A stretch of 11,226 nucleotides of DNA from Streptosporangiaceae bacterium (GTDB taxonomy: Bacteria > Actinomycetota > Actinomycetes > Streptosporangiales > Streptosporangiaceae): NCBI GenBank assembly GCA_025934635.1, contig JAICWX010000276.1, positions 1 to 11,226 on the forward strand, in the 5' to 3' direction. The notes under the pieces are model-generated. The model had not been told where the DNA came from and ran no database searches. It saw only the letters and a list, made by a program, of their open reading frames with translations. Positions 976 through 11,131 of the stretch are shown here, in pieces. The position numbers were made by a program, and so were the translations under genes. Positions within the stretch are counted from its first letter, which is position 1, and each line of letters opens with the position of its first letter.

Positions 976-1971
976 TTACCCGTGGTCTGCGCGCTCAGCT
1001 CGCAGCCGGTCGAGCAGCTGGACGCAGGCATGCACGGTGCTCGTATGCGGGACGTCGACGCCTAGGCGCGCGGCGAGTTCCACGATCGCGCCGGTCATGC
1101 ACTCGAGTTCGAGCCGCTTGCCGGCTTCCAGGTCCTGCAGCATCGACGTCTTGTGGTCGCCGACCGCGATCCCGGCCTCGAGGCGCCGGTCTAGCGACAC
1201 CGGGAAGCTGACGCCGAGACGAGCGGCCACCGCGGCGGACTCGGCGAACAGGGCGCGCAGCAGATCGTGCATGGCCGGGAGCGTGCCGAGCTGGCCGAGT
1301 GTGGCCCCGGTCAGCGCCGTGATCGGGTTGAACGCGACGTTGCCCACGAGCTTGAGCCAGATCTGATCGCGCAGCCTGGCGTCGACCGGTGCGCGCAGGC
1401 CGCCGGCCGCGAAGGCCCGGGAGATCGCCCGGACCCGCGGCGAGTCCGACCCGTCCGGCTCGCCGATCGTGAACCGGGTGCCCTCGACGTGCCTGATGAC
1501 GCCGGGCTCGACGATCTCGGTGGAGCAGTACACGACGCAGCCGATGTTGTGGCCGGGGCTGATCGAGGCCGCGATCACTCCGCCCGGATCGACACTCTCC
1601 AGGCCGGTCAGCCCGGCGGCGGCCGCGGGCGGCGGCAGGGACTGGAAGTACCACCAGGGAATGCCGTTCTGGGCCCAGATAGCCGCGGCGCCGGGGGCCA
1701 GCAGGCGGCCGAGCTGCGGCGCGATCGCAGGCAGGCTGTAGGCCTTCAGCGCGACGAAGACGACGTCGGCGTCCGCGACCGCGTCAATGTCGCCGGTGAC
1801 CTCCGGGCGGGCGCAGAAGTCACCGCGCGGCGACTGGACCCGCACGCCGTGCTCGGCCATCGCCTGCCGGTGGGCACCCCGGGCGATCAGCGTGACGTCA
1901 GCGCCGCCGCGGGCCAGGGCGGCACCGACATACGCGCCGATCGCCCCGGCGCCGAGCACCGCGAACTTCAT
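976..1971 (-). CDS. 2-dehydropantoate 2-reductase family protein (ketopantoate reductase-like)
   Basis: A 331-residue NAD(P)H-dependent reductase of the PanE/ApbA family, cytoplasmic; the founding member reduces ketopantoate to pantoate for coenzyme A synthesis. The protein opens with a Rossmann dinucleotide motif, LGAGAIGAYVG (residues 6-16), has the QNGIPWW segment at 101-107, and carries the C-terminal helical domain with K207 in LKLVGNVAFNP (catalytic lysine position), N211, and GDHKTSMLQDLEAGKRLELE, where E288 aligns with the catalytic glutamate of PanE. Length is close to the family norm. The ATG overlaps the stop of the upstream CoA-ligase gene by four bases (ATGA), so translation is probably coupled and the two enzymes probably share a pathway. 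That pairing, rather than pan genes, suggests a paralogue acting on another 2-keto acid; the true substrate is unknown. Confidence 0.9.
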   Translation of the reverse strand: MKFAVLGAGAIGAYVGAALARGGADVTLIARGAHRQAMAEHGVRVQSPRGDFCARPEVTGDIDAVADADVVFVALKAYSLPAIAPQLGRLLAPGAAAIWAQNGIPWWYFQSLPPPAAAAGLTGLESVDPGGVIAASISPGHNIGCVVYCSTEIVEPGVIRHVEGTRFTIGEPDGSDSPRVRAISRAFAAGGLRAPVDARLRDQIWLKLVGNVAFNPITALTGATLGQLGTLPAMHDLLRALFAESAAVAARLGVSFPVSLDRRLEAGIAVGDHKTSMLQDLEAGKRLELECMTGAIVELAARLGVDVPHTSTVHACVQLLDRLRAERADHG

Positions 1972-3533
1972 GCGCCGGCCCGGCGCTGCGCGACGAACTC
2001 CCCGACCCGGCGCCGCTGAACCTTGCCCGTAGGCGTGCGCGGGATCTCCTCGAGCACGTCGATCTGGGCCGGCACCTTGAAGGCCGCGAGCTGCCCGCGG
2101 CAGTGCTCGATCAGGTCACGGGGCTCGGCGTCGGCGCCGAGCGTCACCGCCGCTCCGACGAGCTCTCCGTACTTGGCGTCCGGCACGCCGAAGCAGACGG
2201 CATCGCGCACCGCCGGATGGGAGGCGAGCACCTGCTCGATCTCCGCCGGGGCGATGTTCTCGCCCCCGCGGATGATCATCTCCTTGATCCGTCCTTCGAG
2301 GTAGAGGTACCCGTCACGCAACACACCGCGGTCGCCGGTGCGGAACCAGTCGCCGAAGAACGCCTCGTCGGTGGCGGCCGGGTTGCTCACATATCCCGAC
2401 ATCACCCCGGGCCCGCGGATCACGACCTCGCCAGCGCGGTCGGCCGGCAGCGGCGTGCCCGCCTGGTCGACGATGCGAACCTCGGTGCCAGTCGGCACCC
2501 CGACCGAGGTCGGGATCCTGCCCGCCGGCGGCAGCGGGTTGGACGTCATCTGATGGCTGGCCTCGGTCATCCCGTAGGCCTCGAGCATCGGCGCCTGGTA
2601 GGTCTGCTCCGCCCGTTCCAGGAGCGCGGGCGCCAGCGCGGAACTGCACGACCGGACGAACCGCAGCGTGCCGGGCGGGCCGCCGTCGCCCACCCGGTCC
2701 AGGATCATCTGATGCAGCGTCGGTCCCGCCGACAGCCAGGTGGCGCCGTGCTCGCGGGCCTGAGGCCAGAACCGCTGCGGCGTGAAACGGCGCGGAGCGA
2801 TGACGGCGCCGCCCGCGCCCAGCGCCGCGAACGTGGATGCCACCAGGCCGTGAATGTGGAACAGCGGCATCACGCAGAACGACACATCCGCCTGGCCCAG
2901 CCGGTAATGCGCGGCGATCGTGCGGGCCGAAGCCATGAGGTTGCGCTGCCGCAGCGGGACCTGCTTAGGCCGGCTCGTGGTTCCGCTCGTATGCAAGATG
3001 AGCGCGACATCCTCCGGGCTGCCCGGCTCGAACGCGCGCTGAAGCGTCGCCGCCTGGCCGTCCGCCAGCAGTTCCGGAGGCCCGTCCCCCGACGGCCGGA
3101 GGCCGGAGGAGGTCTCCCCGGACGGCCGGACGCCGAGCACGGTTATCCCGGTGGCGGCTGCCGCGGTGGTGGCGGCTGCCGCGCCGCTGGCCGGTATCAG
3201 CATCAGCCGGGGAGCGATGTCGGTCAGGAAGAACTGGTACTCGGCCGCGGTGTAGGCGGGGTTCAGCGGAGCCGCCGCGGCACCGAGAGCGGTCACGGCG
3301 AGCAGCAGCAAGACAACGTCCGGGCCATTGGGCAGCGCGAGAGCAACCCGGTCTCCGCGGCGCACGCCCAGCCCGGCGAGCCGCTGGGCCAGCGTCTCGA
3401 CCCGCGCAGCGACCTGCGTGTAGGTGAGCACCTCGCCGCTGTCCGGCACGATGAGCGCCGGATGCCCGGCCGCACCACCCGCCAGCAGCGCCAGCAGCGA
3501 CTCGCCTGCCGCCCGGCCGTTCTCCTCCGACAA
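1968..3533 (-). CDS. Adenylate-forming acyl-CoA ligase, oxalate-CoA ligase (AAE3/Pcs60)-like
   Basis: A 521-residue ANL-superfamily enzyme that activates a carboxylic acid with ATP and transfers it to coenzyme A. Core motifs are HTSGTTSRPK (181-190, phosphate-binding loop), PLFHIHG (223-229), YGMTEA (320-325), GDWFRTGD (394-401), GRIKEMIIRGGE (414-425, hinge) and PTGK with catalytic K504. The stretches VRSCSSALAP and MTEASHQMTSNPLPP closely resemble oxalyl-CoA synthetases AAE3 (plants) and Pcs60 (yeast), so a small diacid is a plausible substrate; this comes from memory of the family, not a search. I chose the TTG at 3533 because an AGGAGG lies 9 bases upstream and the protein then has normal length without overlapping the upstream gene; the longer open frame to 3644 would. 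A Gly/Ser/Pro-rich insert at about 136-152 contains a short repeat (RPSG twice). Confidence 0.88.
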   Translation of the reverse strand: MSEENGRAAGESLLALLAGGAAGHPALIVPDSGEVLTYTQVAARVETLAQRLAGLGVRRGDRVALALPNGPDVVLLLLAVTALGAAAAPLNPAYTAAEYQFFLTDIAPRLMLIPASGAAAATTAAAATGITVLGVRPSGETSSGLRPSGDGPPELLADGQAATLQRAFEPGSPEDVALILHTSGTTSRPKQVPLRQRNLMASARTIAAHYRLGQADVSFCVMPLFHIHGLVASTFAALGAGGAVIAPRRFTPQRFWPQAREHGATWLSAGPTLHQMILDRVGDGGPPGTLRFVRSCSSALAPALLERAEQTYQAPMLEAYGMTEASHQMTSNPLPPAGRIPTSVGVPTGTEVRIVDQAGTPLPADRAGEVVIRGPGVMSGYVSNPAATDEAFFGDWFRTGDRGVLRDGYLYLEGRIKEMIIRGGENIAPAEIEQVLASHPAVRDAVCFGVPDAKYGELVGAAVTLGADAEPRDLIEHCRGQLAAFKVPAQIDVLEEIPRTPTGKVQRRRVGEFVAQRRAGA

Positions 3534-3604
3534 TCGACCCGCCTCCTGCTCTCTGGTGCCGCATGAAAATGGTACGACGCCCGGTCTGCGGCAGAAGCGA
3601 CGTT

Positions 3605-4234
3605 CTACGGCGCTCGGAGCGGTGCCAGATCGAGCAAGTACCACGCCATGATCGCCGGGTCGCAGTCATCGTCCCACCGGCTCATCCGTTCGATCTCAAA
3701 TGAGCGAAGCACCTTGCCCGGCTCGCCCACACGAGCCCGTCCCGGGCCGCCGGGAACATAATTGATCTGCCGGTGCTCGATCTTCAGCCGGTGCACGTAC
3801 CAGTCGCTGCGCAGATCGGGCAGGCCGAATGCATCCCACTCGTAGTCGCCCACCACGCTGAGGGCGCACTGCACGGTAACACGCGAACCCGCAGCGACCA
3901 TGGACGCAGGTCCTGCCGTACGGGCGACAAACGCCTGATCGCCGGCAGTGATCACGAACTCCGAGCCGATATGCCGCTGCCCGGGCCCATCGCCGGCGTG
4001 CACATCTGCGGCAGGCCCGGCCATTCCGGTCAGTTCATAGCGGTGACCGGCGGGCTCCTGGCTGCCGCGGGGGTCTGCGAGTTCCGCGATGCCGTCCGGC
4101 ACCGTCCGGGCCGGGCCAGCGCTGAGGCAGTCGGCCCGCAGGCCCACGCCGCGCAGCTGCGAGCCGCGGGCAAGTTCGGCCGCGCCATCCTTGACGATCC
4201 AGGTCTCCATATACACCCACACGATTGACATCAT
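3605..4234 (-). CDS. Hypothetical protein, first gene of the minus-strand operon
   Basis: A 209-residue protein (208 if the second of two consecutive ATG codons is used) that I do not recognise. It starts MMSIVWVYMETWIVKDG and has no clear signal peptide or membrane helix. The sequence is rich in short alternating hydrophobic segments (SEFVITAGDQAFVARTAG, SRVTVQCALSVVGDYEWDAF), suggesting a mostly beta fold, and ends with an acidic WDDDCDPAIMAWYLLDL segment. The frame opens further upstream to 4270, but that extension (Arg-rich) looks non-coding. The ribosome site before the double ATG is weak (cacgggg). It ends 71 bases before the CoA-ligase start on the same strand, so co-transcription is likely. 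It is divergent from the RiPP operon and shares its 238-base upstream region, so a regulatory or accessory link to that operon is possible but unproven. Confidence 0.6.
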   Translation of the reverse strand: MMSIVWVYMETWIVKDGAAELARGSQLRGVGLRADCLSAGPARTVPDGIAELADPRGSQEPAGHRYELTGMAGPAADVHAGDGPGQRHIGSEFVITAGDQAFVARTAGPASMVAAGSRVTVQCALSVVGDYEWDAFGLPDLRSDWYVHRLKIEHRQINYVPGGPGRARVGEPGKVLRSFEIERMSRWDDDCDPAIMAWYLLDLAPLRAP

Positions 4235-4457: not shown

Positions 4458-4467
4458 AAGGAGGTGA
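4458..4467 (+). promoter_or_regulatory. Near-perfect ribosome binding site of precursor A
   Basis: AAGGAGGTGA matches the 16S rRNA anti-Shine-Dalgarno tail along its whole length and stands 5 bases before the ATG at 4473. The same AGGAGGTGA with the same 5-base spacing precedes precursor B. Most other genes here have weak sites or rely on overlap, so the two peptides are set for unusually high translation. This also fixes the start of the small gene. Confidence 0.85.
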
Positions 4468-4472
4468 CATAC

Positions 4473-4589
4473 ATGAGTTCATGGACCACGCCCGAGATCC
4501 GGAGCGACGAATTCTCGGCGATGATGTTCCTTACTGGGTGCTCCTGCGAGTGCCAAGGCGGTGCCGGAGCGGGTTCCGGCGTACCGTAG
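4473..4589 (+). CDS. RiPP precursor peptide A, Cys-x-Cys-x-Cys type
   Basis: A 38-residue peptide at the head of the operon. It has a leader starting MSSWTTPEI (residues 1-9), a variable stretch with EF, then MFLTG (18-22), three alternating cysteines C23, C25 and C27 in GCSCECQ, and a small-residue tail GGAGAGSG (29-36) followed by VP. Precursor B at the other end of the operon matches it at 24 of 33 ungapped positions (WTTPEI through GSG). Identity covers the leader motif, MFL, all three Cys and the entire tail; five of the eight tail codons differ synonymously, so the peptide rather than the DNA is conserved. The start is fixed by a near-perfect ribosome site. WxxP near the amino terminus recalls PqqA, and the adjacent radical SAM and PqqD genes fit such a leader. 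Presumed product: a crosslinked, exported peptide; the precursor family is not one I recognise. Confidence 0.88.
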   Translation: MSSWTTPEIRSDEFSAMMFLTGCSCECQGGAGAGSGVP

Positions 4590-4613
4590 CCGAGTTCGGC
4601 GCATTAACTGCCT

Positions 4614-4668
4614 GGAAACCCGTCCGGGCTGTTCATTGGCTTCTGTCGGCCTGCCCGGGCGGGTTTCC
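4614..4668 (+). terminator. Hairpin between precursor A and the radical SAM gene (probable attenuator)
   Basis: Bases 4614-4629 (GGAAACCCGTCCGGGC) pair with 4653-4668 over 16 positions, 15 Watson-Crick and one G-U, around a 23-base loop. No T-tract follows. It lies 24 bases after the precursor stop and 47 before the maturase start, and no ribosome site is inside it. Partial termination here would leave many short precursor transcripts and few full operon transcripts, a common arrangement for RiPP clusters. It might instead protect the precursor mRNA from 3' decay. Confidence 0.7.
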
Positions 4669-4715
4669 GCGAGACACCTTGCCCCGTCCATCCGAGTTCC
4701 ACCAAGGGAAATATC

Positions 4716-6173
4716 TTGCTCACTGACCTTCTCTCGTCAGCGTGCGTCCCGAAGGACCTTGTCTACTTCAGGGACGGCGCACGTAATCTCGTCGTCAATC
4801 CAGAACTGGGTGCCTGGGAGGTGCTCGACGATTCCGAGCTCGGCACACTCCGCAGTGTGGCGAACGATGAGCCGCTCGCGGACGCTGATCGGCAGCCGGT
4901 CGAGCGCACCCTTGCCCGGCTGGTCCTCGGCTGGGTCATCTACTTGCCAGGAAAGCAGCCCGTTCTGCGTCAGGTCGATTCCTCGCTGAAGATGGTGTAC
5001 TACGCCATCACCGACGGCTGCAATCTCCGCTGTCCCTACTGCTACGCCTCTTCGGAGAAGCCGCTTCCCGGCGAGCTGACCACCGCCCAGTCCCTGGATC
5101 TTGTGGATCAGGCCGCCGACATGGGCGCCGAGGTCATGGTGTTCACCGGCGGCGAGCCGATGCAGCGCCGGGACCTCTTCGATATCGCCGCCCGGGCCAC
5201 CGAACGCGGGATGCGGGCGAACATCATCACCAACGCCACCCTCATCCGCAAGCCGGAGATGGCGCGAAAAGTGGCCCGTACCTTCTCAACGGTCACCGTG
5301 AGTATCGACGGCGGAACGGCCGAGATCCACGAACGTACCCGGGGAAAGGGAACCTTCGCCAAGTCCGTCGCCGCCTTGCGCATGCTCAACGCGGAAGGCG
5401 TCCGGCCGATCATCAACCACGTGATCACCCAGGAGAACGTGGACCTCGTCTCCGAGCTGGCCGAGTTGGCAGCCGGCATCGACGTCGCCCGGGTGCGCAC
5501 CATGTACCACAGCGATCTCGGCCGTGGCGCCTCCGACAGTGACTCCTTCGGCTGGGCCGAGTACAAGCGGCTGCACGAATTCATGTGGACGGATCCGAGG
5601 GCGGCGAATCTCCTGCCCGATGGCCCGCTGGGCCAGAAGTCGTGCCAGACCCGGGTCAACTGCGGACTGGGCGGCAACGAGATCTACGTCAACTCGCTGG
5701 GCGACGTCTATCCGTGCAAGCTCGTTACCGGGCGGGAGCACCGGGCGGGCACCGTGAAGGAAACCCCGCTGCGCGAGCTTTTCGCCTCTCCCGTGCTGGC
5801 TGACCTGCGGTCCAACGCGGTGTTCGCGGGCGACAACCTGACCGACTGCCGGCGCTGCTACATCCGCGGGGCCTGCGCCGGCGGCTGCCGCGCCTACCAC
5901 ATGGCCGAGTCGGGCAGCCTGAAGCGGAACTCTCGCGCACTGTGCCGGATGTTGCGCCACCAGATGATCACCTCGATGTGGATGGGCGCGGGCTCGGGGC
6001 GGGAGACCATCGTGGACAACGAGGATGAAGCGTTCCGTCCGCTGCTGGTGGCCACCGGCGAGCAGCACCCGGTGTATGAGGACTGGAAGGCAGAGCAGGC
6101 CACCGCCGGGCTGACGGCTGGTGCGGCCCGGCGGCGGCAGCTGCCGCTGAGCGTCGTGGCAGGTGCGCGATGA
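4716..6173 (+). CDS. Radical SAM/SPASM peptide maturase
   Basis: A 485-residue enzyme predicted to modify the two small precursors by radical chemistry. The SAM-binding iron-sulfur motif is C102-NLR-C106-PY-C109, followed by FTGGEP (143-148), where SAM is bound. The carboxyl half has a full SPASM domain for two extra clusters: C316, twelve residues, G329, C334 (G-x4-C), then C378-x2-C381-x5-C387-x3-C391, and a last C410; C310 is extra. SPASM enzymes include PqqE and sactipeptide/ranthipeptide synthases that form thioether or carbon-carbon links. The first 90 residues (for example NPELGAWEVLDDSELGTL) look like a small winged-helix or RRE-like domain. The start is the TTG at 4716 with AAGGGA six bases before it; no better start is in frame. 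The stop overlaps the PqqD-like gene by ATGA. Which bond it makes is inferred at best. Confidence 0.93.
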   Translation: MLTDLLSSACVPKDLVYFRDGARNLVVNPELGAWEVLDDSELGTLRSVANDEPLADADRQPVERTLARLVLGWVIYLPGKQPVLRQVDSSLKMVYYAITDGCNLRCPYCYASSEKPLPGELTTAQSLDLVDQAADMGAEVMVFTGGEPMQRRDLFDIAARATERGMRANIITNATLIRKPEMARKVARTFSTVTVSIDGGTAEIHERTRGKGTFAKSVAALRMLNAEGVRPIINHVITQENVDLVSELAELAAGIDVARVRTMYHSDLGRGASDSDSFGWAEYKRLHEFMWTDPRAANLLPDGPLGQKSCQTRVNCGLGGNEIYVNSLGDVYPCKLVTGREHRAGTVKETPLRELFASPVLADLRSNAVFAGDNLTDCRRCYIRGACAGGCRAYHMAESGSLKRNSRALCRMLRHQMITSMWMGAGSGRETIVDNEDEAFRPLLVATGEQHPVYEDWKAEQATAGLTAGAARRRQLPLSVVAGAR

Positions 6174-6466
6174 GGTGGGCGGTCAACCCCAGTGTCGTCT
6201 GGTCGGAGTCCGGCGAGGAGATCCGGTTGTACGACACGGCCAGCGGCGACTTCCATACCCTCAGCCCGACCGGGTCGGCGATCTGGCGGCGCATTGCGGA
6301 CACCGGCGACCAGGACGCGATCGTGGCCGCCCTTGCAGAGGAGTTCGGAGCCCAAGATGACAATCAGCGGCACCTCATCGCCAACGACACCGAGCGATTC
6401 ATCCGCGGCCTCGTCGAAGTCGGACTCATCGTCGAGCAGCCGTCCGGTGCCGCGCTCCCTCAGTGA
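6170..6466 (+). CDS. PqqD-like RiPP recognition element protein
   Basis: A 98-residue stand-alone member of the PqqD family, the three-strand, three-helix winged-helix fold that binds RiPP leader peptides and presents them to the modifying enzyme. The family pattern is visible: VVWSESGEEIRLYDTASGDFHTL (beta hairpin), then SPTGSAIWRRIADTG, matching the usual 'l..tg..iW.li..g' core, then an Asp/Glu-rich helix and a final hydrophobic helix FIRGLVEVGLIVEQ. Length is normal for PqqD (about 90). Its ATG lies in an ATGA overlap with the radical SAM stop, so the two are probably made together and act as a complex. The likely ligand is the shared WTTPEI leader of precursors A and B, by analogy with PqqD and PqqA. 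Confidence 0.9.
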   Translation: MRWAVNPSVVWSESGEEIRLYDTASGDFHTLSPTGSAIWRRIADTGDQDAIVAALAEEFGAQDDNQRHLIANDTERFIRGLVEVGLIVEQPSGAALPQ

Positions 6467-7241
6467 GAACTCCTCCGCCGGTCTCATCGAGCTGGTCGTC
6501 AGCGGGCTGGCCGCTCGCGGGCGGGTGACGATCCCGGTCAGCGGCACGAGCATGCTGCCGACGCTGCGATCGGGCGAGCGCGTGACCTTGTACCCCGCGC
6601 GGCCTGATGCCATCCGGCCGCAGGATGTGATCGCCTTCCGCGCGTCAGGCCAGCTCGGCCTGCACCGGGTGCACGCGGTGTTCCCCGACCGGGTCATCAC
6701 CGCGGGCGACAATTACGGTCTCTTCGATCCCCCGCCGGTGCCGATGGCGGCGGTGATCGGCGTCGCCCGGGACGTCCCCGGGCGGGCGGCACCGCGGCGA
6801 TGGCCGCGCCAGCCGGGGCCGATCGCCGCCGATGTCTGGCTGATTGGCGGCCCCGCCGGCCCCCGGAACCAGGAGGGCGGCGCCGCGCCGGCGGGATGGC
6901 GGCTGCACCGGCGGCAGGCCGAGGGCATCGGCGTCTCGGCGGAGGTACTCGCGGAGCTTCAGGCCGCGGCCGCCGGAAGGCCCTGCGTCGGCGTGACCGA
7001 ACACGCCGTGCACGCGGCCTCCGACGTTCTCAGCGGCCTGCCCCCGCAGACCCAGGTGCTGGTGGGCTGCTCCTTCGGCCGCCTGAAGCCAGCCCTGGCG
7101 CAAACGCTGCCCGGCAACCTGGTGCCGACCGAGATCGCCGACGTGTTCGTCCGGCTGGGGCCGCCCGGGGTTCCGGTCAGCGCCGCCGATGCCCTGCGCG
7201 AACTGGCCGCCCTGGTCGCACCCGGGGAAGGTGCCGCATGA
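6447..7241 (+). CDS. S26-like (signal-peptidase-fold) protease with an unknown C-terminal domain
   Basis: The first 110 residues match the S24/S26 serine peptidase fold: SGTSMLPTL (32-40) with the catalytic serine at S35, GERVTLYP, QDVIAFR, LHRVHAV (72-78) with H73, and ITAGDNYGLFD (84-94). The lysine usual in bacterial signal peptidases (K-G-D) is replaced by A86, so the pairing would be Ser-His, as in SEC11/SipW-type enzymes. No membrane segment is seen, unlike true leader peptidases, so it probably works in the cytoplasm. Residues from about 150 to 264 form a second domain that I do not recognise; it contains VGVTEHAVHAASDVL and QVLVGCSFGRLK. The start is taken as GTG at 6447, 20 bases inside the PqqD-like gene; its ribosome site is weak, so the start is uncertain. 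The stop overlaps the ATPase start by ATGA. A role in trimming the modified precursor is inferred from context. Confidence 0.78.
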   Translation: MPRSLSENSSAGLIELVVSGLAARGRVTIPVSGTSMLPTLRSGERVTLYPARPDAIRPQDVIAFRASGQLGLHRVHAVFPDRVITAGDNYGLFDPPPVPMAAVIGVARDVPGRAAPRRWPRQPGPIAADVWLIGGPAGPRNQEGGAAPAGWRLHRRQAEGIGVSAEVLAELQAAAAGRPCVGVTEHAVHAASDVLSGLPPQTQVLVGCSFGRLKPALAQTLPGNLVPTEIADVFVRLGPPGVPVSAADALRELAALVAPGEGAA

Positions 7242-8185
7242 CCGCGATCGTCGCGGCGCGGTCGCTGACCAAGCGGTACAAGGGAATGGACCACCCGGCG
7301 GTGGACGCCGTCACCCTTGACATCGATGAAGGCGTGGTGGTCGGGCTGCTCGGCCCGAATGGCGCGGGCAAGACCACGCTGGTCAAGCTGCTGTGCGGGG
7401 TAACGATGCCCACGAGCGGGGAGATCAGGGTGCTCGGCGGCGATCCCGTCGCCGACGCGGCAGCGGTCAAGCAGCGCGTCGCGGTGGTGCACCAGCTGAT
7501 GCCGGTCGACAACATGCTGCCGGCCGTCGACAACGTGAAGATCGCGGCCGCGTTCCGCGGGTTGCGCTGGCGGGAGGTGCGCTCCCGGGTTGACGAGATG
7601 GTCGTTCAGTTCGGCTTGACGGATGCCATGGGCCAGCTGGCGTTTACCTTGTCCGGCGGGCAGCGTCGGCGCCTGCAGCTTATCCGCGCGCTCCTGGTGG
7701 TGCCCCGGCTGCTGATGCTGGACGAGCCGTCCGCGGGCCTGGATGTCCAGGGGCGCCGGCAAATGTGGGACGTGATCGGCAAGCTGAACTCCGAACATGG
7801 CACCACCATCATCTGGACCAGCCACTACATCGAGGAGATTGAGCGCAACTGCTCCCGGGTCCTCATCGTCGATGGCGGGTCGCTGATCCGGGACGAGCCA
7901 CCGGCCGTGCTGGTGCGCGAGTTCGGGGAGCGATCGATCCGGGTGCTCCTGCCTGAGGCGGCCGACCGTGCCCGGTTGCTCGCGCTCCTCCCGGCGGAAT
8001 GCGTCACCGCCTCGGCTGAACACGAGATAGAGATCGAAGGCCCGGACGCCGACCGGCACTTCGCCGCCGTGGTCGAGCTGGTCCGGGACGCCGCCGGGCG
8101 CGGCGCGACCATCGAGTTCCGCGTGCCGTCGCTCGAGGACGCCTACATCGCACTGGTGGATCGTCAGCAGGAGCCGGCCCGATGA
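7238..8185 (+). CDS. ABC transporter ATP-binding protein, ABC-2 type
   Basis: A 315-residue cytoplasmic ATPase of the DrrA/CcmA-like exporter class. Walker A is GPNGAGKTT (39-47), the Q-loop is VVHQ (83-86), the signature is LSGGQ (138-142), Walker B is LLMLDEP (158-164), and the switch histidine is H196 in TSHYIEE. After the nucleotide-binding domain there is a C-terminal region of roughly 90 residues ending in FRVPSLEDAYIAL, the usual end of drug/peptide-exporter ATPases. It starts at the ATG overlapping the S26-like gene stop and ends overlapping the permease start (ATGA both times), so stoichiometric production with the permease is expected. It should power export of the matured peptides and may also give self-protection. 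There is no fused C39 peptidase domain, so leader removal must be done elsewhere. Confidence 0.94.
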   Translation: MTAIVAARSLTKRYKGMDHPAVDAVTLDIDEGVVVGLLGPNGAGKTTLVKLLCGVTMPTSGEIRVLGGDPVADAAAVKQRVAVVHQLMPVDNMLPAVDNVKIAAAFRGLRWREVRSRVDEMVVQFGLTDAMGQLAFTLSGGQRRRLQLIRALLVVPRLLMLDEPSAGLDVQGRRQMWDVIGKLNSEHGTTIIWTSHYIEEIERNCSRVLIVDGGSLIRDEPPAVLVREFGERSIRVLLPEAADRARLLALLPAECVTASAEHEIEIEGPDADRHFAAVVELVRDAAGRGATIEFRVPSLEDAYIALVDRQQEPAR

Positions 8186-9006
8186 CAAGTATCCTGACCC
8201 GGGCAACCTCGGACGCTGGCCTGGACGAGCTCAGGCGGCCACGGCACAACGCGATGCGCGCCATTATCTACCGGGAGTTCCTGCTCCTGACCAGGAACCG
8301 CACCAATCTCCTGCTGGCGATCCTGCCCACCACGATTTACCTCCTGCTCTTCTCCACGTCCCTGAACGGGCTGGTAGGACAAATCCGCTATCACGGGGCG
8401 CTGGTGGGCTACCCGGAGTTCACCATCCCGGCGATCATGCTGTCTTCGATGCTCGCTGCGTCCACCACGACGGGGACATCCTTGTTCCAGGAGGAGACCG
8501 GCGGCATGGCGGTGGAACTGTGGTCCTACCCGCTGAGCCGGACGGCCTACATCTCGGGAAAGATCATCGCCACGACACTTCTGGTGCTGGTGCAGAGCGT
8601 GGCCGCGCTCCTGCTGGGGGTCCTCATCTTCCACGTCGGCTGGCCGGCTAGCCACTGGGTGGCCCTCGGGGTGGGGACCCTGATCGCTTCCCTGACGTTC
8701 AACGCCTTCTTCCTGATGCTGGCGTCATTCGTCCATGACTTTCAGCGTTTCATGGTGCTCATCAACGTGATCGGGCCGATGCTGCTGTTTTCCAGCCCGT
8801 CGTTTTATCCGGTTGATCGCATGCCGTCAGCGCTGCGACTGTTTTCCGTCATCAATCCCGTGACCTACGGAGTCGAATGCCTGCGCGAAGGCGCGATCTT
8901 CGGCTTTCGCGCGATGTGGCCCTTCGCGGTGGGCCTCGCCGTGGCCTCGGTGGGCCTAGCGGCGCTGATCGTCGGCGTGCTAGCCCGCCGCCTCCGCGAG
9001 CTATAA
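8182..9006 (+). CDS. ABC-2 type transporter permease
   Basis: A 274-residue integral membrane protein with six predicted helices, around residues 42-60, 80-101, 128-150, 158-183, 190-211 and 246-267, after a cytosolic N-terminal stretch of about 35 residues containing a membrane-proximal amphipathic REFLLLTRNR. The pattern and the loop sequence SFYPVDRMPSALRLFSVINP are characteristic of ABC-2 permeases such as DrrB/NodJ, in which a proline-rich turn precedes the last helix. It pairs with the ATPase encoded just upstream through an ATGA overlap to form the exporter, probably as a dimer of permease and dimer of ATPase. The precursor B gene starts 35 bases after its stop. The likely cargo is the matured RiPP, by position only. 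Confidence 0.93.
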   Translation: MTSILTRATSDAGLDELRRPRHNAMRAIIYREFLLLTRNRTNLLLAILPTTIYLLLFSTSLNGLVGQIRYHGALVGYPEFTIPAIMLSSMLAASTTTGTSLFQEETGGMAVELWSYPLSRTAYISGKIIATTLLVLVQSVAALLLGVLIFHVGWPASHWVALGVGTLIASLTFNAFFLMLASFVHDFQRFMVLINVIGPMLLFSSPSFYPVDRMPSALRLFSVINPVTYGVECLREGAIFGFRAMWPFAVGLAVASVGLAALIVGVLARRLREL

Positions 9007-9027
9007 AGCCCCCGCCCGGATACCGAG

Positions 9028-9036
9028 AGGAGGTGA
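9028..9036 (+). promoter_or_regulatory. Strong ribosome binding site of precursor B
   Basis: AGGAGGTGA sits 5 bases before the ATG at 9042, the same core and spacing as the site before precursor A. The bases between it and the start (aaata) and the first codons are unusually A+T rich for this window, which keeps the start site unfolded. Confidence 0.85.
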
Positions 9037-9041
9037 AAATA

Positions 9042-9152
9042 ATGGAGTGGACCACACCAGAAATCCACCTTAAGGAATTCCAGGCAGAGATGTTCCTCGT
9101 CGGTTGCATTTGCGGATGCCATGGCGGCGCCGGAGCTGGCTCAGGTAATTGA
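9042..9152 (+). CDS. RiPP precursor peptide B, Cys-x-Cys-x-Cys type
   Basis: A 36-residue peptide at the distal end of the operon, homologous to precursor A. The leader reads MEWTTPEIHLKEF (1-13), then MFLVG (17-21), the alternating cysteines C22, C24 and C26 in GCICGCH, and the tail GGAGAGSG (28-35) plus a final Asn. Against precursor A the residues between the cysteines change (S to I, E to G) and so does the one after the last (Q to H), while everything around them is fixed. That is the pattern of a product whose ring framework is conserved and whose exposed positions vary. Its A/T-ending codons (ACA, CCA, GAA, CTT, GCA) are unlike its neighbours, perhaps to keep the start accessible. The ATG at 9042 is set by the strong ribosome site; longer in-frame extensions upstream overlap the permease and are spurious. 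It is followed directly by the operon terminator. Confidence 0.88.
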   Translation: MEWTTPEIHLKEFQAEMFLVGCICGCHGGAGAGSGN

Positions 9153-9169
9153 GCATGCCCCGTACGTGA

Positions 9170-9205
9170 AAGAGCCGGTGACGCGGGATCGCGTCACCGG
9201 CTCTT
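9170..9205. terminator. Perfect 16-bp terminator hairpin closing the RiPP operon
   Basis: Bases 9170-9185 (AAGAGCCGGTGACGCG) and 9190-9205 are perfect reverse complements around the tetraloop GGAT. The stem begins with A/T pairs and ends CTCTTCT on the plus strand, close to a classical intrinsic terminator. It is 17 bases after the precursor B stop and, since the gene on the far side is convergent, it may stop transcription from both sides. Confidence 0.85.
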
Positions 9206-9306
9206 CTAGCTGGCCAGCGAGCCCAGCCAGCCGGCCTCGAACTGGTCGCGTGAAATCCGTTCCGGCGGACCAGCGACAATCCGGCGACGGTGACGGCTGG
9301 GATCAG

Positions 9307-10029: not shown

Positions 10030-10175
10030 CGTGCATTCCTGCGCGTCCGGCGGATCGCCGCCACTCAGGCTGGCCAGGGCAGAACTCACTGCGTCACCTT
10101 CCGCTGGACGAGTTCCCCGGCCTTGCCTCACCGATTGTGACCGGCACCGGGCCCGCAGCGGAAGATGACGCGCGA

Positions 10176-10307
10176 CTACGTAAGGGAACCGAAATGGGTG
10201 AATCTGTCGGTGATCTGGCCCTCGCGGGCGATCCGGATCTGCTGCCAGGTGGCCATGGCCCCTGCGACGACAAACAGTGCGGCCAGAACCTGAAGAAGCT
10301 GGTTCAG
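10176..10307 (-). pseudogene. N-terminal remnant of a membrane-anchored protein
   Basis: On the minus strand the frame reads LLQVLAALFVVAGAMATW, one membrane helix, then QQIRIAREGQITDRFT, and stops eight codons later after unrelated residues (HFGSLT). The helix followed by R-E-G-Q-I-T-D/E-R-F/Y-T is the usual beginning of actinobacterial membrane-anchored proteins, often with pentapeptide repeats after it; here everything downstream is gone. It begins where the TetR remnant stops, so it has no start region of its own. I read it as a broken gene fragment, recognised from memory of the motif rather than from a search. Confidence 0.5.
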
Positions 10308-10456
10308 GGTGCAGGTCGGAGGCCGTCCATCAGGATGTTCAGCAGGCGGCTTGCCCTGGCGTGGTGTCCGGGCGGGCGGGCCACGGTGAAGATGCCGATG
10401 AGGCTGGCGGCGATGTCTTCGGCGGTGACGTCGGCGCGGAGTTCGCCCGTCACGCC
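10304..10456 (-). pseudogene. C-terminal remnant of a TetR-family regulator
   Basis: About 50 codons on the minus strand read GELRADVTAEDIAASLIGIF, then HHARASRLLNILMDGLRP and a stop. This is the typical end of the ligand-binding domain of TetR-family repressors (x-L-R-x-D-V-T-x-x-D-I/L-A-x-x-L-x-G followed by R-x-L-x-x-L-x-D-G-L-R-P). The DNA-binding helix-turn-helix and roughly three quarters of the protein are missing. The homology ends at about 10456, and the neighbouring dehydrogenase remnant begins at about 10464 on the opposite strand. Confidence 0.65.
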
Positions 10457-10463
10457 GGCCAAC

Positions 10464-10628
10464 GGCGCCAACGCCGCCCCCGGCGCCATCGAGGAGATCG
10501 CCCGCCTGGTCGCGGCCGGCCAGCTCCGTGTGCCCATCGCGGCAACCTTCCCGGTCGGGCAGATCCGCGCTGCGGTCGAGCTGCAAGCCGGCCGGCACGT
10601 CCACGGCAAGGTCGTCATCGACCTCTAG
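10464..10628 (+). pseudogene. C-terminal remnant of a zinc-type alcohol dehydrogenase/quinone reductase
   Basis: Some 54 codons end with the typical carboxyl terminus of medium-chain NADPH-dependent oxidoreductases: EEIARLVAAGQLRVPIAATF, then QIRAAVELQAGRHVHGKVVI and the stop. A complete enzyme has over 300 residues, so the catalytic domain and most of the Rossmann fold are absent. The frame is open further left, but that part overlaps the antisense TetR fragment and is not related to the family. A 7-bp hairpin follows at once (10628-10646), probably the old terminator. Confidence 0.7.

Positions 10629-11057: not shown

Positions 11058-11131
<74 letters not shown>

What the first reader, a model, noticed from the sequence alone, without database searches (positions are those of the whole stretch)
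4458..9205. Complete RiPP operon bracketed by two homologous Cys-x-Cys-x-Cys precursor genes
Seen: two peptides of 38 and 36 residues, 24 of 33 aligned positions identical, each with a near-perfect Shine-Dalgarno at the same spacing. One is the first and one the last gene of a unit encoding a radical SAM/SPASM enzyme, a PqqD-like protein, an S26-fold protein and an ABC exporter, closed by a perfect terminator. The five middle genes are joined by overlaps. Known: radical SAM-SPASM plus PqqD is the standard maturation pair for PQQ, mycofactocin and sactipeptide/ranthipeptide systems. Inference: one maturase acts on both peptides, giving two related products. The leader motif WTTPEI only loosely recalls PqqA, and I know of no described family with this CxCxC plus GGAGAGSG precursor.
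Basis: partly seen in the sequence, partly recalled or inferred. Interest (0 to 1): 0.93.

Follow-up and report, generated by a model that had tools for sequence, protein, structure and literature searches.

The report
Two-precursor sactipeptide operon with fused protease
This actinobacterial gene cluster belongs to the already described StsA/StsB sactipeptide family; it carries two related precursor-peptide genes, one at each end, which a single radical enzyme is predicted to cross-link and an unusual two-domain signal-peptidase-like protein would likely trim.

Summary
In detail: precursor genes at 4473-4589 and 9042-9152 bracket five overlapping genes and a 16-bp hairpin. 'No described family' does not hold: the radical SAM enzyme passes the StsB cut-off (693 vs 625 bits) and the upstream precursor passes StsA (46.3 vs 42); the downstream one just misses (40.4). 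StsA/B/C is a known actinobacterial sactipeptide system whose StsC binds a WxxP leader motif (PMC12710340) that both precursors carry. Most likely one maturase serves two peptides.

Two features are less ordinary. A downstream precursor is seen in 3 of 16 StsA-type loci, exactly the window's clade. The 'S26' gene is a soluble signal-peptidase-like protein with invariant Ser, His and Asp residues plus a C-terminal domain whose predicted fold resembles SPOUT methyltransferases (sequence profiles disagree). It sits in 5 of 10 clusters reached without searching for it. Precursors of clusters with it carry [F/I]xAx[M/L] before the first Cys in 15 of 17 cases, against 0 of 5 without it and 5 of 34 long precursors. 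I infer leader removal there; untested.

The parts
4460..4467 (+). Shine-Dalgarno GGAGGTGA of the upstream precursor
   Evidence: sequence; 8-nt SD match
4473..4589 (+). upstream StsA-type precursor, 38 aa, WTTPEI leader, CSCEC core
   Evidence: NF045558 StsA 46.3 bits, cut-off 42; the only 3 database relatives found, P0030-P0032
4614..4668 (+). hairpin between precursor and stsB, 16-bp stem; likely a partial terminator that keeps precursor mRNA above maturase mRNA (inferred)
   Evidence: z -4.35 over 4605-4690, -2.90 over the whole gap 4590-4715; the same gap in L001, L002, L004, L006 folds with z -2.4 to -3.4
4716..6173 (+). StsB-type radical SAM/SPASM sactisynthase (TTG start, 485 aa)
   Evidence: NF045574 693.3 bits, cut-off 625; Radical_SAM and SPASM Pfam hits; in one 100/100 clade with StsB of S. 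sparsogenes
6170..6466 (+). StsC-type discrete PqqD-fold leader-binding protein (RRE), 98 aa
   Evidence: PF05402 50.8 bits; TIGR04353 39.1 bits, cut-off 35
6447..7241 (+). soluble S26-type signal-peptidase-like protein (GTG start, 264 aa; Ser35, His73, Asp88, Asp94) with SPOUT-fold-like C-terminal domain
7238..8185 (+). ABC exporter ATPase (DrrA-like), 315 aa
   Evidence: PF00005 105.7 bits; TIGR01188 243.8 bits, below its cut-off 312
8182..9006 (+). ABC-2 membrane subunit, 274 aa
   Evidence: PF01061 92.1 bits
9029..9036 (+). Shine-Dalgarno GGAGGTGA of the downstream precursor
   Evidence: sequence; 8-nt SD match
9042..9152 (+). downstream StsA-like precursor, 36 aa, WTTPEI leader, CICGC core
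   Evidence: NF045558 40.4 bits, just under cut-off 42; orthologue at the same place in L001 with the same CICGCHGGAGAGSG core scores 43.4
9170..9205 (+). perfect 16-bp stem-loop closing the unit
   Evidence: sequence; 9160-9215 z -5.61; not listed by the terminator scan

Best explanation
This is a StsA/StsB/StsC-family sactipeptide gene cluster in which one StsB-type radical SAM enzyme, guided by a StsC-type PqqD protein, is predicted to cross-link two StsA-like precursors encoded at its two ends. Shown here: family membership by curated models, gene order, conservation of the paired precursors, and selection on both. Inferred: (1) StsC binds the WTTP leader motif of both peptides and presents them to StsB; (2) StsB joins the three Cys of each CxCxC core to alpha carbons in the Gly/Ala/Ser tail, up to three sactionine bonds per peptide; (3) the S26-type protein cuts the leader near the [F/I]xAx[M/L] motif just before the first Cys, and its SPOUT-like domain may bind SAM or the peptide; (4) the ABC-2 exporter ships both products; (5) the hairpin after the first precursor lets that precursor be made in excess. 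My estimates: (1)-(2) about 0.85 for the upstream and 0.8 for the downstream peptide, (3) about 0.5, (4) about 0.8.
For: StsB model 693.3 bits (cut-off 625), StsA model 46.3 and 40.4 bits (cut-off 42). L004 of S. sparsogenes: StsB 816 bits, StsA 84.5 bits; its precursor fits the published StsA numbering, in which the W(-15)/V(-14) and K(-13)/P(-12) double-Ala variants lost StsC binding (PMC12710340 passages). StsB tree: window + L001 + L002 100/100, inside a 10-row short-precursor clade 100/100. Downstream precursor at the same place in window, L001 and L002; same-position copies of window and L001 are closer (dS 0.44 and 0.95; 0.61 to L001's second upstream copy) than copies at the two ends of one genome (dS 2.26 and 2.11), so the pair predates their split; dN/dS about 0.13 to 0.36 over the six pairs computed. 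Ser 21 of 21, His 24 of 24, both Asp 26 of 26 where covered in A1, and invariant in the 17 rows of A4 down to 26% identity. The profile aligns with human SEC11 catalytic subunits over these residues. Motif [F/I]xAx[M/L]: 15 of 17 precursors in clusters with the S26 gene, 0 of 5 in short-precursor clusters without it, 5 of 34 long precursors; the S26 profile finds nothing in 9 of 9 long-precursor loci examined out of 31.
Against: No chemistry was measured. The downstream precursor falls 1.6 bits short of the StsA cut-off, and both L002 precursors fall well short (27.6 and 23.2). The motif was picked after looking at the sequences and the rows are related, so Fisher p 0.0008 overstates it; with only the loci reached without the S26 search it is 7 of 9 against 0 of 5, p 0.02. 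Two S26-cluster precursors (L001 second upstream copy, L002 downstream) lack it, and long precursors in L016, L034, L039, L040 and L041 have it; of these loci, L034 and L040 were examined more widely (L093, L094) and no S26 gene was found. Six of the 11 S26 loci were found by searching for the S26 protein itself. In one of those (L084) the C-domain reads in another frame after a stop. S. sparsogenes lacks the S26 gene, so the family does not need it. Of 9 strong S26 relatives in 394 Streptomycetaceae genomes, 2 have no StsB beside them.
Confidence: 0.8

Rival explanations
1. [quoted passage not shown]
For: Two distinct cores kept at two fixed places in three loci under purifying selection; the window and L001 downstream cores are identical over CICGCHGGAGAGSG while upstream cores vary. 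Thuricin CD is a precedent for two-component sactipeptides (PMC12093266 abstract and passages).
Against: Only 3 of 16 short-precursor loci have a downstream copy; L001 also has two upstream copies, and L082 and L084 have tandem upstream pairs, which looks like general precursor multiplication. I found no activity for any Sts product in what I read.
Confidence: 0.25
2. Only the upstream precursor is a working substrate; the downstream copy is a spare, decoy or regulatory peptide.
For: The downstream copy scores just under the StsA cut-off, and no downstream copy was seen in 13 of 16 loci.
Against: Same Shine-Dalgarno and spacing, all three Cys, WTTPEI leader; dN/dS 0.16 to L001's copy.
Confidence: 0.1
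3. The S26-type protein is not the leader peptidase but a LexA/UmuD-like self-cleaving or regulatory protein, or a self-protection factor resting on its SPOUT-like domain.
Against: The general base is His within LHRV, and by sequence the profile best fits SEC11-type signal peptidases, whereas LexA/UmuD use Lys (recalled). No DNA-binding domain in the Pfam scans. Correlation with the junction motif.
Confidence: 0.35
4. The bond is not a sactionine: StsB-like enzymes here make another crosslink, or act like MftC or PqqE.
For: The maturase also scores 136 bits with the mycofactocin and 97 bits with the PQQ maturase model.
Against: Those scores are far below their cut-offs (265 and 381) while StsB is above its own; the precursor Cys pattern is that of StsA.
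Confidence: 0.1

Closest known systems
StsA/StsB/StsC sactipeptide system (NCBIfam NF045558, NF045574; PMC12710340, citing Precord et al. 2023; that it is from Streptomyces sparsogenes is recalled)
   Same: StsB model above cut-off, discrete PqqD protein, WxxP leader, CxCxC-GGAGAGSG-type core, DrrA/ABC-2-type exporter genes downstream in L004
   Different: S. sparsogenes locus L004 has one precursor and no S26-type gene; the window has two precursors, one after the exporter, and the S26-SPOUT-like gene
StsA-related long precursors (NF045559, aroma-sacti domain NF045560)
   Same: StsB relatives at 51-57% identity with a PqqD gene beside them
   Different: about 90-residue precursors with C.C(G/A/S)xWSG cores; separate 31-row StsB clade, 100/100; no S26-type gene in the 9 loci examined
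thuricin CD (Trn-alpha/Trn-beta)
   Same: two sactipeptide precursors in one cluster, three thioether-forming Cys each (PMC8172795 and PMC12093266 passages)
   Different: two radical SAM enzymes that form a complex, here one; a separate PqqD protein here
SEC11-type (S26) signal peptidases
   Different: no transmembrane segment (max KD19 1.28) and an extra C-terminal domain; LexA and UmuD match the fold about as well
SPOUT methyltransferases (RlmH, TrmH, TrmD, thiostrepton-resistance)
   Different: no Pfam match and no profile similarity; joined to a protease-like domain in a peptide cluster; SAM binding untested

Membership tests
StsA/StsB/StsC sactipeptide family | maturase passes the curated StsB model | tested here: met
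   693.3 bits, cut-off 625
StsA/StsB/StsC sactipeptide family | upstream precursor passes the curated StsA model | tested here: met
   46.3 bits, cut-off 42
StsA/StsB/StsC sactipeptide family | downstream precursor passes the curated StsA model | tested here: not met
   40.4 bits, cut-off 42; its L001 orthologue passes with 43.4. On this ground I call the downstream gene StsA-like, not StsA
StsA/StsB/StsC sactipeptide family | discrete PqqD-fold leader-binding protein next to StsB | tested here: met
   PF05402 50.8 bits, gene overlaps stsB
StsA/StsB/StsC sactipeptide family | WxxP recognition motif in the leader | tested here: met
   WTTP in both; W..P in 22 of 22 short precursors compared
StsA/StsB/StsC sactipeptide family | S-to-alpha-carbon thioether (sactionine) in the product | not testable with these tools
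   needs mass spectrometry or NMR
[quoted passage not shown]
   one radical SAM gene among the seven genes of the unit
two-component sactipeptide (thuricin CD type) | synergy of two products | not testable with these tools
   needs purified products
PQQ / mycofactocin systems | maturase passes the PqqE or mycofactocin radical SAM model | tested here: not met
   97.3 vs 381.35 and 136.2 vs 265 bits
S26 signal peptidase | catalytic Ser with His (or Lys) and conserved Asp | tested here: met
   invariant in A4, aligned with SEC11C/SEC11A
S26 signal peptidase | passes a curated signal-peptidase or S24/S26 score | tested here: not met
   TIGR02228 33 vs 51.85; PF00717 14.1 vs 23.3 and PF10502 12.5 vs 22.9; relatives P0025 and P0040 pass PF00717 with 24.5 and 26.9
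S26 signal peptidase | membrane anchor | tested here: not met
   no window above KD19 1.6
SPOUT methyltransferase | alpha/beta-knot fold | tested here: inconclusive
SPOUT methyltransferase | sequence profile similarity | tested here: not met
   no Pfam SPOUT hit in the scan of 26 members; hhalign against 9 SpoU domains probability 0.6%
SPOUT methyltransferase | SAM binding and methyl transfer | not testable with these tools
   needs an assay

The most novel reading that the evidence does not exclude
A single soluble enzyme that joins a signal-peptidase-type Ser-His protease to a SPOUT-type methyltransferase finishes both sactipeptides: it cuts the leader at the FxAxM site and methylates the freed peptide, and the two products act as a pair. 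That would be a new class of RiPP protease, a peptide-modifying SPOUT enzyme (a 2022 review knows one protein-modifying member, Sfm1; PMC9508554 passages), and a two-component sactipeptide made by one maturase.
Probability: 0.1. Interest if true: 0.8.

Novelty: new variant of a known kind. Interest (0 to 1): 0.5.

Why it matters
It places a seemingly orphan cluster in a characterised sactipeptide family. It also turns a vague 'S26' gene into a testable candidate for the leader peptidase of part of that family: a review of RiPP leader proteases has no occurrence of S26 or signal peptidase in its main text (PMC10885120; weak evidence, since 'sactipeptide' is absent there too). The paired precursors give a natural test of whether one StsB serves two substrates. 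If the SPOUT-like domain is active, it would add a methyltransferase class to RiPP chemistry.

Tried and rejected
Rejected: PQQ- or mycofactocin-like system (scores far under cut-offs). Rejected: precursors are chance ORFs (0 of 400 shuffles; codon-position pattern). Rejected: bracketing is a private duplication of this window (same-position copies in L001 and L002). My first patterns missed the downstream precursor of L001; it was seen in raw sequence and confirmed. ORFs with a C.C motif downstream of the exporter in L003, L004 and L007 lack the leader motif and were not taken as precursors. A tree of ten precursors resolved nothing (0 of 7 branches starred), so orthology rests on position and dS. 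SPOUT membership by sequence failed; RlmH family PF02590 gave no match in the 4 genomes searched.

Led nowhere: no whole genome is held for the window; Precord et al. 2023, the primary StsB paper, is not held, so its content is recalled; I saw only its reference line and what PMC12710340 says of StsA/StsC (passages). Pfam gave no hit for six precursors even at E 10, although P0030-P0032 carry a precomputed PF28249 label. PMC10635010 was searched for S26 and gave nothing of use (passages). Paper searches for StsA/StsB, CxCxC sactipeptides, S. sparsogenes sactipeptides, StsC, GggB/sactionine, the Precord title, S26 with RiPP, SPOUT with RiPP, and Nonomuraea/Streptosporangiaceae sactipeptides listed no paper that I recognised as describing the bracketed layout or the S26-SPOUT-like protein; the library is open-access only and I saw listings, so absence in print is not shown.

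Slips: one search translated one base out of frame (right frame); the active-site columns were misread and the script stopped (redone); the first row used wrong coordinates and is dropped; L078 is the same locus as L005, and L008-L011 repeat L001, L002, L004 and L043, so they were not counted twice. Two of 32 genomes (G045, G046) gave no locus and are not in the tree. For that reason and the frame break in L084 I lowered step 3 from 0.55 to 0.5 and the novel case from 0.12 to 0.10.


Full report
WHAT IS THERE. The window holds, on the plus strand, a precursor gene (4473-4589), a radical SAM/SPASM gene (4716-6173), a PqqD-fold gene (6170-6466), a signal-peptidase-like gene (6447-7241, GTG start; database relatives P0007 and P0008 have exactly this 264-residue length), an ABC ATPase (7238-8185), an ABC-2 membrane protein (8182-9006) and a second precursor gene (9042-9152), closed by a 16-bp perfect hairpin at 9170-9205. 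The precursors read MSSWTTPEIRSDEFSAMMFLTGCSCECQGGAGAGSGVP and MEWTTPEIHLKEFQAEMFLVGCICGCHGGAGAGSGN. The W..P-CxCxC-Gly pattern is found twice in the window and in 0 of 400 shuffles.

IT IS A KNOWN FAMILY. NCBIfam scores the maturase 693.3 bits with the StsB model (cut-off 625) and the upstream precursor 46.3 bits with the StsA model (cut-off 42); the downstream one scores 40.4, just under. The mycofactocin and PQQ models are far under their cut-offs. L004, Streptomyces sparsogenes ATCC 25498, carries a 59.6%-identical StsB and the precursor MEKPAWVKPEMLPVEFGVELPCSCDCSGGAGAGSGNAESEQRLEI (84.5 bits). [quoted passage not shown] The L004 leader fits that numbering, so I take L004 as that system; the passages name no species and the accession could not be looked up, so this is inference plus recall. 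The primary paper, cited there as Precord et al. 2023, is not held; from recall its abstract says that StsB of S. sparsogenes was shown to form sactionine bonds. StsB relatives at E <= 1e-100 occur in 32 of 341 genomes of the family of G002 (Nonomuraea), 5 of 391 sampled from the order of G003 (S. sparsogenes), and 5 of 394 sampled from the class, the last five all seen before.

WHERE THE WINDOW SITS. A tree of 41 StsB proteins puts window, L001 (Streptosporangiaceae MAG, 92% identical) and L002 (Nonomuraea endophytica) together at 100/100, inside a 10-row clade with short StsA-type precursors (100/100), apart from 31 rows of the long-precursor type; a long-type precursor is seen in all 31 of those loci, two each in L013, L018 and L034. 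The place of L043 beside the window's clade is weak (83/18). I examined 16 distinct short-precursor loci: the window, L001-L007, L043, L045, L079-L084; the last six were found through the S26 protein and are not in the tree.

TWO PRECURSORS. A precursor after the exporter is found in 3 of 16 loci: window, L001 (13291-13404) and L002 (14199-14318), the three members of the window's own clade (downstream searches covered about 2 kb or more and needed a C.C motif, most also an aromatic-xxP motif, so a divergent copy could be missed). L001 also has two tandem upstream copies; L082 and L084 have tandem upstream pairs. Downstream cores of window and L001 share CICGCHGGAGAGSG. Synonymous divergence between same-position copies of window and L001 (0.44 up, 0.95 down) is well below that between the copies at the two ends of one genome (2.26 and 2.11), so the pair is older than the split; dN/dS is about 0.13 to 0.36 over six pairs. 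Both peptides are therefore kept by selection. Whether they work together is open.

LINK OF THAT PROTEIN TO THE PATHWAY. Of the 10 loci reached without searching for it, 5 have it: window, L001, L002, L005, L043. It is missing in L003, L004, L006, L007 and L045, where only 18-114 nt separate the StsC and ATPase matches. A search of 394 Streptomycetaceae genomes with the S26 profile gave 30 genomes at E <= 1e-8; of the nine best places (E <= 2.5e-22), seven lie between StsC and the ABC ATPase of an StsB cluster (one of them L005 again), and two (L085, L086) have no StsB nearby. In one of the seven (L084) the protease domain is open but a stop ends that frame and a C-domain-like stretch continues in another frame. 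The nine long-precursor loci I fetched at 14-15 kb, of 31 in the tree, have none. Precursors from the 11 S26 loci carry [F/I]xAx[M/L] shortly before the first Cys in 15 of 17 cases, those from the 5 loci without it in 0 of 5, and long precursors in 5 of 34. Without the six loci found through S26 it is 7 of 9 against 0 of 5, p 0.02. The motif was found by eye first and the rows are related, so this is a hypothesis with a test, not a proof. It suggests that this protein removes the leader and that clusters without it use another protease. A review of RiPP leader proteases (PMC10885120, searched by term only) has no occurrence of S26, signal peptidase or SPOUT, but none of sactipeptide either.

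REGULATION. The 126 nt between the first precursor and stsB hold a 16-bp-stem hairpin (4614-4668; z -4.35 for 4605-4690, -2.90 for the whole gap); the same gap folds with z -2.67, -2.38, -3.43 and -2.42 in L001, L002, L004 and L006. A partial terminator that favours precursor mRNA is the ordinary reading, by analogy with other RiPP operons (recalled). No sigma-70-type promoter match was found (0 found, 0.4 expected).

VERDICT. A sound observation, an over-stated novelty. The cluster is a new variant of the Sts sactipeptide kind; the surprise lies in the S26/SPOUT-like gene and in the conserved downstream precursor, not in the precursor motif.

Noticed in passing
L085 5316-6158 (minus) and L086 3528-4373 (plus): Relatives of the S26-SPOUT-like protein with no StsB, StsC or Sts exporter match nearby, both with a TetR regulator in the neighbourhood. 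What they act on is unknown; L086 is a 5.2-kb contig.
   Followed up: partly
L088 1505-3224, L090 2387-4106, L093 3405-5064: Some long-precursor clusters have Sts-like ABC exporter genes upstream of the precursor or on the other strand; the other six of nine fetched showed none or only weak or partial matches within 14-15 kb.
   Followed up: no
L013, L018, L034: Two long StsA-related precursors per locus, in tandem or divergent: precursor multiplication also occurs in the long-precursor clade.
   Followed up: no
L084 3640-4460 and L082 (minus strand): Divergent C-domains of the S26-type protein share a stretch like LLIGGxIGEGAAGTxDFIPSAL; in L084 it reads in another frame than the protease domain.
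   Followed up: partly
L045 (pSCAT of Streptantibioticus cattleyicolor): An Sts cluster lies on a 1.8-Mb linear plasmid typed as mobilizable, so the system can travel.
   Followed up: partly
window 10137-10628: ORF matching only part of a zinc-binding dehydrogenase domain (PF13602 positions 48-134): possibly a gene remnant.
   Followed up: no
window 976-3644 and 26-658: Flanking genes are ordinary: ketopantoate-reductase-like and AMP-binding enzyme (minus strand), end of a family-5 solute-binding protein; a tRNA gene at 11061-11131 minus.
   Followed up: yes
P0030-P0032: Precomputed Pfam label PF28249 on upstream-precursor relatives, while the Pfam copy held here gives no hit for P0030 at E 10: probably a newer Pfam family for StsA-like peptides.
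   Followed up: partly
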